From an uncultured Dehalococcoidia bacterium (GTDB lineage: Bacteria > Chloroflexota > Dehalococcoidia > Dehalococcoidales > UBA1222), in NCBI GenBank assembly GCA_903844845.1, contig CAIMVG010000029.1:1-38152 (forward strand): 38,152 nt of DNA. The letters are read 5' to 3'. How positions within the stretch are numbered: the first letter of the stretch is position 1; every line of letters starts with the position of its first letter. Positions 24,366-31,053 of the stretch are shown here, in pieces. A model generated the notes under the pieces. It made no database searches and had not been told where the DNA came from. It worked only from the letters and a program-made list of their open reading frames with translations. The translations under genes were made by a program, and so were the position numbers.

Positions 24366-24794
24366 ATGCCTGAGATGCTTATCCGGCAGTATTCCGCCGA
24401 CAATGAAAATGCGATAATCGAGCTGTGGCAGCGCTGTGGCCTGACGCGTCCCTGGAACGACCCCCGCAAGGACATCGCGCGCAAGCTAAAGGTTAATCCT
24501 GAGTTATTTCTGGTCGGCTTCGTGAACGGAAAGGTTGCCGCCAGCGCCGTGGCGGGATACGAAGGGCACCGCGGTTGGGTGAATTACCTGGCGGTTGACC
24601 CGGATTTTCAGCGGAAGGGTTTGGGGAGGCAGATGATGCAAAACGTCGAGCAGGCGCTGGCCCGAATGGGTTGTCCCAAAGTCAACATCCAGGTGAGGAC
24701 AGGGAACCTGAATGCCATCGAGTTTTATAAAAACCTCGGTTACAAGATTGACGAGACTGTCAGCATGGGGAAACGGCTCGAAGAAGACATCTAG
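24366..24794 (+). CDS. GNAT-family acetyltransferase, YpeA-like
   Basis: A 142-residue N-acetyltransferase. From ATG 24366 it begins MPEMLIRQYSADNENAIIELWQRCGLTRPWNDPRKDI, which resembles YpeA of enterobacteria as I recall it (LWERCDLLRPWNDPEMDI). The acetyl-CoA binding motif A is WVNYLAVDPDFQRKGLGRQMM, with Q-R-K-G-L-G near residues 88-93. The C-terminal FYKNLGYKIDETVSMGKRLEED is also YpeA-like. The substrate is not known for this family. The reading frame is open further upstream to 24237, but that would cross the promoter. GGAG sits 8 nt before the chosen start. The gene is transcribed alone. Confidence 0.85.
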   Translation: MPEMLIRQYSADNENAIIELWQRCGLTRPWNDPRKDIARKLKVNPELFLVGFVNGKVAASAVAGYEGHRGWVNYLAVDPDFQRKGLGRQMMQNVEQALARMGCPKVNIQVRTGNLNAIEFYKNLGYKIDETVSMGKRLEEDI

Positions 24795-28948: not shown

Positions 28949-28982
28949 CTGCTCGGTGAGTGGATGTGGTTCACAAAGAAGT

Positions 28983-29335
28983 GGCCAAGTAAACCTGTAA
29001 GCCGAGTTCTGTATCCGCCCGAAGGCGGACGACGACCATCTATCTAGCCCTCCCATTACTGGGAGGGTCGTGCGACCAACCCGGGGAAAGGCCGGGCACC
29101 AGGATCCCCCTATTTGGTCTTGCTCCGGATGGGGTTTGCCCGGCCGGCCGGTCACCCGGCGCGCCGGTGAGCTCTTACCTCGCCATTTCACCCTTGCCCG
29201 CCGAAGCGGGCGGTTTGTTTCTGTGGCACTATGCCGTAGGGTCACCCCTCCTGGACGTTATCCAGCATCCTGCCCGGTGGAGCTCGGACTTTCCTCCCAG
29301 AAATAAATCAGGGCGGTCGTCCGGTTTACTTGGCC
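28983..29335 (-). ncRNA. rnpB: RNase P RNA, bacterial class A type
   Basis: This is the catalytic RNA that removes 5' leaders from tRNA precursors. The ends pair perfectly over 13 bp as helix P1 (29323-29335 with 28983-28995). The universally conserved core is present on the minus strand: GAGGAAAGTCCG near the 5' end (about 29287-29298) and ACAGAA...GGCTTAC near the 3' end (about 28996-29015). GGTAAGAGCTCACCGG and a GC-rich P12-like arm lie between. The total is about 353 nt, normal for class A. A promoter with TTGACA lies directly upstream. It follows the RNase H-GNAT gene on the same strand but has its own promoter. Confidence 0.95.
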
Positions 29336-29341
29336 GTATAT

Positions 29342-29370
29342 ACTCTATCGGAGGGGGTGGTTTATGTCAA
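29342..29370 (-). promoter_or_regulatory. Promoter of rnpB
   Basis: On the minus strand TTGACA (29365-29370) and TAGAGT (29342-29347) are 17 bp apart. The predicted start, 7 nt past the -10, coincides with the first base of helix P1 at 29335. A 12-bp palindrome, TATTTGCAAATA (29387-29398), lies 17 bp further upstream. Confidence 0.8.
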
Positions 29371-29417: not shown

Positions 29418-30323
29418 TCAAACATGCTTCCACATACGCCTGCTGACGGTCTTGTAACCCATTTTCTCGTAAAAAGCAGTGGCTCCCCGGTTGAAATCCC
29501 ATACATTCAGATCGATGGCTTCGATGCGGCGTTCCGCAGCCCAGTCCTCCGCTGCCGCCAGCAACGCCGTGCCGGCGCCGCTCCGGTAAAACCTTCTCGC
29601 CACGCAGAGGTAGCTTATCTTGACGAAACGCCGCGGGCGCAGCATTGAGCCAACCTCGGGTTCTTTTATTTTCAAAAGGATATATCCGAGAACCTCCGTT
29701 CCCCTTTCTGCGACCATAAGGACTGCATGTTCATCCGCCATAGCGGAATCAAACTCCTTTACCCTTTCCTCATGGGACATGGTCCTGAAGAAATCAGGAA
29801 CTCCTTCGACATGCTGCTTCTCGAGTTCAATGAAGATACTGAGCATGTCCGGGTAATCAGATTGTGTAGCGCGCCTGGATTTGATGGCAGGAGCCCCGGG
29901 TGGTTTTCTCCGTTGTTTGGGGGAATCCAGCGCCTGGTTGGCCAGCCTGTCGGCTTCCGAATTCTTTTCGCGCGGGATGTGATGTACTTTGAACGAAGTG
30001 AACCCGCGGCACAATTGCTGTGTTTTTAGATAAAGAGGGGTTAATGATGCGTTTTTTACTTTATATTCGCCTGAGAGCTGGCGTACCACGAGTTCCGAGT
30101 CAGAGCAGATTTCGACTCCGGTTGCCCCGATGTCCCGCGCTTTTTCCAGCCCGGCTATCATCGCGCGGTATTCGGCCTGGTTGTTAGTCGCTTTCCCAAG
30201 GCAAAGAGATATGGTTTCGAGGATTTGCCCGATTTCATCCTGGATAACGACCCCAATAGCGGCCGGCCCGGGGTTTCCGCGTGAGGCGCCATCGGTGAAT
30301 ATAACGACTTTCTTAGGAGCCAT
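29418..30323 (-). CDS. Fusion of RNase H type I and a GNAT acetyltransferase
   Basis: The protein has 301 residues from ATG 30323, two bases after the stop of the zinc-ribbon gene. Residues 1-135 form an RNase HI domain with all four acidic catalytic residues: Asp11 (FTDGAS), Glu51 (NNQAEY), Asp75 (CSDSE) and Asp125 (EADRLAN). It should cleave RNA in RNA-DNA hybrids. A basic, Pro-rich linker (SPKQRRKPPGAP) joins a GNAT domain (about 149-301) with the acetyl-CoA site YLCVARRFYRSGAGTALL and the C-terminal NRGATAFYEKMGYK. RNase H fused to other domains is known (actinobacterial RNase H-phosphatase), but I do not recall this pairing as described. The acetylation target is unknown. The gene lies between a zinc-ribbon protein and rnpB. 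Confidence 0.88.
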   Translation of the reverse strand: MAPKKVVIFTDGASRGNPGPAAIGVVIQDEIGQILETISLCLGKATNNQAEYRAMIAGLEKARDIGATGVEICSDSELVVRQLSGEYKVKNASLTPLYLKTQQLCRGFTSFKVHHIPREKNSEADRLANQALDSPKQRRKPPGAPAIKSRRATQSDYPDMLSIFIELEKQHVEGVPDFFRTMSHEERVKEFDSAMADEHAVLMVAERGTEVLGYILLKIKEPEVGSMLRPRRFVKISYLCVARRFYRSGAGTALLAAAEDWAAERRIEAIDLNVWDFNRGATAFYEKMGYKTVSRRMWKHV

Positions 30324-30325
30324 TT

Positions 30326-31018
30326 TTACTCGAAATACAGTATCCTGCTGCAGCTGGAGCACTGGGCCATTTTCCCGCTGCGGGCTTTTTGCAGTTCCGC
30401 GCTCGAGAGCGATATCCGGCAGCGCCCGCAGGTGCCCTTATCGATCTTAGCCACTGCGATACCGCGGCGGGTCTTTATCTCTGCGTAAAAGTTTAATTCT
30501 TCAGGAGGTATCGCTAAAATTATCTTCTTGCGGCCTTCTTTTAACTGAGCCAGTTTGACGGTAAGTTCTTCTATCTGCAGGTGCAGGCTCTTGTGTTCCG
30601 CGCCCAGACGGCTCTCCAGCGATTTCAGGTCATCCTCGAATTTCTTTATACGTTTCTGGGTGTCTTCGATCTTTTCCATATATCCCATGGCTGTTTCTTC
30701 CAGGGGGTCGCGCTGTTTTTTGAGGGATTCCAGCTCCTGTTGAAGGCTGCCCAACTCCTTGGGGTTACGGACGCGCCCGCTGTAAAGGGACTCGTTGGCG
30801 ACCGTCATCTTCCCGGTGATATCCGAGATAGACCAATCGTTTTCTTTTTGCAGTTTCAAGAGGGCATCGAGTTCTGATTGGGATTTGGCCAGCAGCGCTT
30901 TCGCACGGCGTAATTCTTCATTCTCGTTGAGTTTAGCTGTCGCCAGGGCTGATAGTTTATCTGTGGATTCTATTTCGAGGTCACAATCCTGTAGCTGGTT
31001 CAGTTGACGGACGCTCAT
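30326..31018 (-). CDS. Coiled-coil protein with C-terminal C4 zinc ribbon
   Basis: The 230-residue protein starts with a long coiled coil (about 10-170; NESLYSGRVRNPKELGSLQQELESLKKQRDPLEE is the typical hinge of this family) and ends in a zinc ribbon with CGRC and CSSC, near residues 198-201 and 221-224. The family has structurally characterised members in Helicobacter and is widespread next to RNase H genes; in Mycobacterium the homologue sits beside the RNase H-phosphatase fusion gene, as I recall. It probably binds nucleic acid or a nucleic-acid enzyme. The promoter places the transcript start at the ATG itself, so the mRNA seems leaderless. The stop is 2 bp before the RNase H-GNAT start. 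Confidence 0.88.
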   Translation of the reverse strand: MSVRQLNQLQDCDLEIESTDKLSALATAKLNENEELRRAKALLAKSQSELDALLKLQKENDWSISDITGKMTVANESLYSGRVRNPKELGSLQQELESLKKQRDPLEETAMGYMEKIEDTQKRIKKFEDDLKSLESRLGAEHKSLHLQIEELTVKLAQLKEGRKKIILAIPPEELNFYAEIKTRRGIAVAKIDKGTCGRCRISLSSAELQKARSGKMAQCSSCSRILYFE

Positions 31019-31024
31019 AAAACT

Positions 31025-31053
31025 ATTTTAGCCTTCGTGATATCGAATAGCAA
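31025..31053 (-). promoter_or_regulatory. Leaderless promoter for zinc-ribbon and RNase H-GNAT genes
   Basis: On the minus strand TTGCTA (31048-31053) and TAAAAT (31025-31030) are 17 bp apart. A start 7 nt beyond the -10 falls at 31018, the A of the ATG. Confidence 0.55.

What the first reader, a model, noticed from the sequence alone, without database searches (positions are those of the whole stretch)
29418..31018. RNase H fused to a GNAT acetyltransferase, coupled to a zinc-ribbon protein and next to rnpB
Seen: one uninterrupted 301-residue frame has a complete RNase HI catalytic set (Asp11, Glu51, Asp75, Asp125), a basic Pro-rich linker and a full GNAT domain with an intact acetyl-CoA loop. 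The gene is 2 bp after a coiled-coil zinc-ribbon gene and 82 bp before RNase P RNA. Known: actinobacterial RNase H is fused to a phosphatase and sits beside the same zinc-ribbon family. Inference: the RNase H of this operon is a platform that recruits different modifying domains, and acetylation (of protein or RNA) may be linked to R-loop or RNA processing.
Basis: partly seen in the sequence, partly recalled or inferred. Interest (0 to 1): 0.72.

Follow-up and report, generated by a model that had tools for sequence, protein, structure and literature searches.

The report
RNase H fused to an acetyltransferase
One bacterial gene really does join an RNA-cutting enzyme (RNase H) to a small acetyltransferase in a single protein, but the join was found in no other genome searched and looks like a lineage-specific gene fusion rather than evidence that acetylation is tied to RNA processing.

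Summary
Window 29418-30323 (-) is one 301-codon frame: a Rv2228c-type RNase HI (tetrad D11, E51, D75, D125), a short basic linker and a GNAT fold (Pfam, AlphaFold, Foldseek). There is no in-frame start codon between residues 105 and 159, so the GNAT cannot be made whole on its own. The gene starts 2 bp after a CT398-like zinc-ribbon gene and stops 85 bp before rnpB, but a good sigma-70-like promoter just upstream of rnpB makes an operon with rnpB unlikely.

The fusion was found in no other of about 1,045 genomes searched, including its family, nor in phage or plasmid collections. Relatives carry zinc ribbon plus stand-alone RNase H. The same RNase H type does collect other C-terminal partners: CobC (known), PTPS and metallo-beta-lactamase (seen here). 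Published in vivo work on the CobC fusion found the two domains functionally dissociated. This genome also has a canonical RnhA, an RNase HII and a separate RimI.

Best reading: lineage-specific capture of a stand-alone BH1408/PaiA-like GNAT, with two largely independent activities. It is a new domain partner on a known fusion-prone enzyme, of modest interest.

The parts
29418..30323 (-). RNase H-GNAT fusion gene, 301 aa, ATG start, TGA stop
29925..30314 (-). RNase HI domain (residues 4-133), Rv2228c type, tetrad D11/E51/D75/D125; no insertion corresponding to the basic protrusion
   Evidence: (3hst, E 9e-32)
29880..29924 (-). basic Pro-rich linker (residues 134-148, SPKQRRKPPGAPAIK); no ATG/GTG/TTG codon in frame
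29421..29879 (-). GNAT domain (residues 149-301), BH1408/PaiA-like fold
30326..31018 (-). coiled-coil + C4 zinc-ribbon protein (CT398/Rv2229c-like), 2 bp upstream of the fusion
28982..29332 (-). rnpB, RNase P RNA class A
29342..29370 (-). promoter-like site TTGACA-17-TAGAGT just upstream of rnpB (10 of 12), consistent with separate transcription
31025..31053 (-). weak promoter-like site TTGCTA-17-TAAAAT upstream of the zinc-ribbon gene (9 of 12; about 1.4 such sites expected by chance in the scanned stretch)

Best explanation
It is a genuine, lineage-specific gene fusion. The second RNase HI of this bacterium (Rv2228c type, in the conserved zinc-ribbon / RNase H / rnpB neighbourhood) has gained a formerly stand-alone GNAT acetyltransferase at its C-terminus. 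Most likely the two domains work as independent enzymes on one chain, translated from the zinc-ribbon-RNase H mRNA. The RNase H cuts the RNA of RNA/DNA hybrids; the GNAT acetylates an amine of a small molecule or protein that need not be linked to hybrids. The basic linker and the attached domain may add some substrate affinity that this protrusion-less RNase H lacks, as has been proposed for CobC in Rv2228c. Shown: one frame, both domains with conserved core residues, stand-alone RNase H in relatives, stand-alone GNAT relatives elsewhere. Inferred: both activities, their independence, co-translation with the zinc-ribbon gene, and the affinity effect.
For: Both domains are complete with conserved motifs; the GNAT alone folds confidently (pLDDT 81.5, pTM 0.81) with PaiA, BH1408 and RimI-like structures among the top matches. 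No in-frame start codon lies between residues 105 and 159, so the GNAT has lost its own start. Same-family relatives have the zinc ribbon and a stand-alone 139- or 152-aa RNase H (L043, L044), and in G004 the locus shares YqeY, radical-SAM and NYN neighbours with the window. In 11 further relatives rnpB begins 23-284 bp after the RNase H match, so the GNAT sits in what is normally a short spacer. The closest GNATs, in Chloroflexota (42%, 36%) and Clostridia (36%), are stand-alone. A canonical RnhA and an RNase HII exist elsewhere in the genome. Published in vivo work on RNase H-CobC finds the domains functionally dissociated (PMC7466739).
Against: No expression, read coverage or biochemistry is available. 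The fusion is known from one assembly, so there is no comparative evidence that the joined state is under selection. The Tyr in the acetyl-CoA loop leaves GNAT activity uncertain. The recurrence of different C-terminal partners on this RNase H could mean that fusion is functionally favoured.
Confidence: 0.62

Rival explanations
1. The fusion couples acetylation to hybrid or RNA processing: the RNase H domain brings the GNAT to R-loops or nascent RNA, where it acetylates the zinc-ribbon partner, RNA polymerase, ribosomal proteins or RNA.
For: The zinc-ribbon-RNase H pair is conserved across phyla (14 of 76 loci from a DNA-pattern scan, in Omnitrophota, Actinobacteria, Acidobacteria, Planctomycetes and others) and often lies beside rnpB. 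RNase H of this type gains C-terminal catalytic partners repeatedly.
Against: The partners found (CobC, PTPS, metallo-beta-lactamase, GNAT) share no obvious RNA-modification theme; CobC and RNase H are dissociated in vivo; a separate RimI exists; the fusion is not conserved even within the family.
Confidence: 0.12
2. The GNAT domain is mainly a non-catalytic module that supplies nucleic-acid affinity or stability to an RNase H lacking the basic protrusion.
For: The RNase H lacks a basic-protrusion insertion, as Rv2228c does; full-length Rv2228c is faster than its RNase H domain alone (PMC7466739 introduction); the linker is rich in Lys/Arg; the acetyl-CoA loop deviates from consensus.
Against: GNAT motifs (PRRF, LNVWDFN, FYEKMGY) are retained; stand-alone RNase H relatives manage without it.
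Confidence: 0.18
3. Assembly or sequencing artefact: two genes joined by a missed stop or a chimeric contig.
For: Found in a single genome only.
Against: A missed stop would leave the GNAT without any start codon before its first helix. Both flanks of the locus are syntenic with relatives. The locus is inside a 38-kb contig of a 98% complete, 0.2% contaminated assembly. GC content is the same in both halves (0.531).
Confidence: 0.05

Closest known systems
Rv2228c / MSMEG_4305 / SCO2299 (bifunctional RNase H / CobC acid phosphatase, NF005567)
   Same: Same RNase H subtype at the N-terminus (best solved-structure match 3hst, E 9e-32; NF005567 RNase H part 148.7 bits), C-terminal unrelated enzyme, neighbouring gene Rv2229c (zinc-ribbon family, from my own knowledge)
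   Different: C-terminal domain is a GNAT, not a histidine phosphatase; the full-length NF005567 cut-off (326) is not reached
BH1408 (4e0a/4f6a) and PaiA-type (1tiq) small GNATs
   Same: GNAT domain: sequence match to BH1408 (E 5e-13) and high structural similarity
   Different: Those are stand-alone enzymes; here the domain has no start of its own
CT398/CdsZ/Rv2229c zinc-ribbon proteins (PF24481 + PF02591)
   Same: Adjacent gene; ordinary member by Pfam
   Different: NCBIfam CdsZ equivalog cut-off not reached (42.6 vs 275)
RNase H-PTPS (Coriobacteriia) and RNase H-metallo-beta-lactamase (Chloroflexota family f144) fusions seen here
   Same: Same RNase H with a C-terminal enzyme added in frame
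   Different: Different partner; found in 5 and 4 sampled loci respectively, whereas the GNAT fusion was found once

Membership tests
RNase HI (type 1, Rv2228c-like) | Pfam RNase_H / RVT_3 above the curated cut-off | tested here: met
   52.0 vs 25.8 and 90.1 vs 21.6 bits
RNase HI (type 1, Rv2228c-like) | D-E-D-D catalytic tetrad | tested here: met
   D11, E51, D75, D125 invariant among 21 sequences
RNase HI (type 1, Rv2228c-like) | No basic protrusion | tested here: met
   gap-poor alignment to Rv2228c; model goes from helix 77-83 through a loop to helix 95-105
RNase HI (type 1, Rv2228c-like) | RNA/DNA hybrid cleavage | not testable with these tools
   needs biochemistry
Bifunctional RNase H/acid phosphatase (NF005567) | C-terminal CobC/histidine phosphatase domain | tested here: not met
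   only residues 4-141 match, 148.7 bits vs cut-off 326
GNAT acetyltransferase superfamily | Pfam Acetyltransf_1 above cut-off and GNAT fold | tested here: met
   62.2 vs 20.7 bits; model and Foldseek
GNAT acetyltransferase superfamily | Acetyl-CoA loop Q/R-x-x-G-x-G/A | tested here: inconclusive
   both Gly present, first position Tyr instead of Q/R
RimI (TIGR01575) | Score above the equivalog cut-off | tested here: not met
   43-44 bits vs 86.4; another gene at C9:58286 reaches 90 bits

The most novel reading that the evidence does not exclude
The Rv2228c-type RNase H in the zinc-ribbon/rnpB neighbourhood is a docking platform, and this GNAT acetylates a component met at RNA/DNA hybrids (the zinc-ribbon protein, RNA polymerase or RNA), linking acetyl-CoA status to R-loop removal.
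Probability: 0.06. Interest if true: 0.75.

Novelty: new variant of a known kind. Interest (0 to 1): 0.33.

Why it matters
It adds an acetyltransferase to the enzymes found fused behind this RNase H (CobC known; PTPS and metallo-beta-lactamase seen here). Comparing these fusions could test whether the RNase H gains anything from them or whether the slot after it is simply tolerant of read-through fusions, as has been argued for CobC. If acetylation were coupled to hybrid processing it would be a new regulatory link, but nothing here shows that.

Tried and rejected
(1) Full-length fusion in relatives, class, phylum and Actinomycetota and in phages and plasmids: none. (2) A pre-fusion state with a separate GNAT gene downstream of RNase H: loci whose match ran past about residue 150 or carried extensions (L188-L194) gave RNase H only. 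(3) GNAT as RimI: below cut-off, and a separate RimI exists. (4) Foreign composition of the GNAT half: GC equal to the RNase H half, codon score somewhat lower (0.037 vs 0.120) but within the range of window genes, so inconclusive. (5) Literature for RNase H-GNAT fusions: none found in the open-access library. (6) A combined alignment with GNAT rows misaligned them to RNase H, so the GNAT was modelled separately. (7) The full-length model has low confidence past residue 133 and says nothing about domain packing.

Full report
What is there. On the minus strand the order is zinc-ribbon gene (31018-30326), 2 bp, fusion gene (30323-29418), 85 bp, rnpB (29332-28982). The fusion gene encodes an Rv2228c-type RNase HI (residues 4-133), a 15-residue basic Pro-rich linker, and a GNAT domain (149-301). 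The RNase H tetrad D11, E51, D75, D125 is invariant in an alignment with 20 sequences from other phyla. The GNAT keeps the PRRF, LNVWDFN and FYEKMGY motifs of its stand-alone relatives; the acetyl-CoA loop has both glycines but a Tyr where Q/R is usual. Modelled alone, the GNAT has mean pLDDT 81.5 and pTM 0.81, and it matches PaiA, BH1408, RimI and N-terminal acetyltransferase structures. The full-length model is confident only for the RNase H.

Is it one protein? Yes, by sequence. Between codons 105 and 159 there is no ATG, GTG or TTG in frame, while the GNAT's first strand lies at about 148-151. Even if a stop had been missed, the GNAT would have no start of its own. The locus is inside a 38-kb contig of a 98% complete assembly and its neighbours (zinc ribbon, YqeY, radical-SAM, NYN) are syntenic with G004 of the same family. 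Both halves have GC 0.531. No read data were available.

Is it conserved? No, as far as searched. The full protein was searched in 101 relatives, 393 genomes of the class, 400 of the phylum and 246 of another phylum (centred on a Solirubrobacterales genome), about 1,045 distinct genomes by handle count, in phages and plasmids, and by six peptide patterns in 84,980 species. Only the window's own genome matches over residues 1-301. The held genome set covers about half of GTDB species, the larger groups were sampled, the hit lists were truncated, and the pattern scan is not exhaustive, so rare relatives may exist. In the same family, G004 and G005 have stand-alone RNase H of 139 and 152 aa; the one other genome of the genus gave no zinc-ribbon match and no close match to this RNase H.

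Surroundings. In the 40 relatives, 11 besides the window have zinc ribbon, RNase H and rnpB in that order on one strand with RNase H to rnpB spacing of 23-284 bp. Four (G011, G022, G027, G037) have the zinc ribbon 53-121 bp from rnpB and no RNase H match between. The zinc-ribbon-RNase H pair is old: 14 of 76 loci from diverse phyla have it, and an Omnitrophota locus has all three together. However, rnpB in the window is preceded by TTGACA-17-TAGAGT, so it is probably transcribed separately.

Is this RNase H a platform? It is fusion-prone. Besides CobC in Actinomycetales (PMC7466739), I found in-frame C-terminal PTPS in five Coriobacteriia loci (L067, L068, L069, L071, L094) and a metallo-beta-lactamase domain in four genomes of one Chloroflexota family (L159-L162) (Pfam was run on L069 and L160, the others are alike by sequence). 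Inference from family knowledge: these partners share no single RNA-modification theme. In M. smegmatis the CobC domain serves B12 synthesis and its removal hardly affects RNase H function; the authors favour fixation by drift. In vitro, however, full-length Rv2228c is faster than its RNase H domain.

How it most likely works. RNase H of this sort cleaves RNA in hybrids; a canonical RnhA (C24) and an RNase HII (C6) also exist in this genome, so the fusion is not its only RNase H. The GNAT is not RimI, which is encoded elsewhere. Its closest relatives are stand-alone GNATs of unknown substrate at 36-42% identity. I favour two independent activities in one chain, with a possible affinity gain for the RNase H; this is inference. 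A coupling of acetylation to R-loops is not excluded but has no positive evidence.

Verdict.

Noticed in passing
L067, L068, L069, L071, L094 (RNase H frame starts near 3995 in L069): RNase H fused in frame to a C-terminal 6-pyruvoyl tetrahydropterin synthase domain (PF01242, E 9e-39 for L069) in five Coriobacteriia loci; the pterin link recalls the predicted GTP cyclohydrolase Rv2230c in the mycobacterial operon.
   Followed up: partly
L159, L160, L161, L162: RNase H fused in frame to a C-terminal metallo-beta-lactamase domain (PF12706) in all four genomes checked of one family in the window's phylum (f144), about 440 aa.
   Followed up: partly
L146 (G091) and L177 (G541): RNase H with about 90-100 residue C-terminal extensions that match no Pfam family.
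   Followed up: no
G011:C150:13835-14922, G022:C32:2822-3936, G027:C32:2555-3681, G037:C94:925-2095: Zinc-ribbon gene directly followed by rnpB with no RNase H match between: the zinc-ribbon/rnpB neighbourhood persists without RNase H.
   Followed up: partly
L058:3310-4841: Omnitrophota locus with zinc ribbon, RNase H and rnpB in the same order, 10 and about 17 bp apart.
   Followed up: partly
L046:3410-4036: The same-genus genome G001 carries a different RNase H with a C-terminal Cys/His-rich tail resembling a SWIM zinc finger, in what looks like a mobile-element setting.
   Followed up: no
window 24417-24749 (+): A second, separate GNAT (RimI profile 51 bits, below cut-off) about 5 kb away in the same contig.
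   Followed up: no
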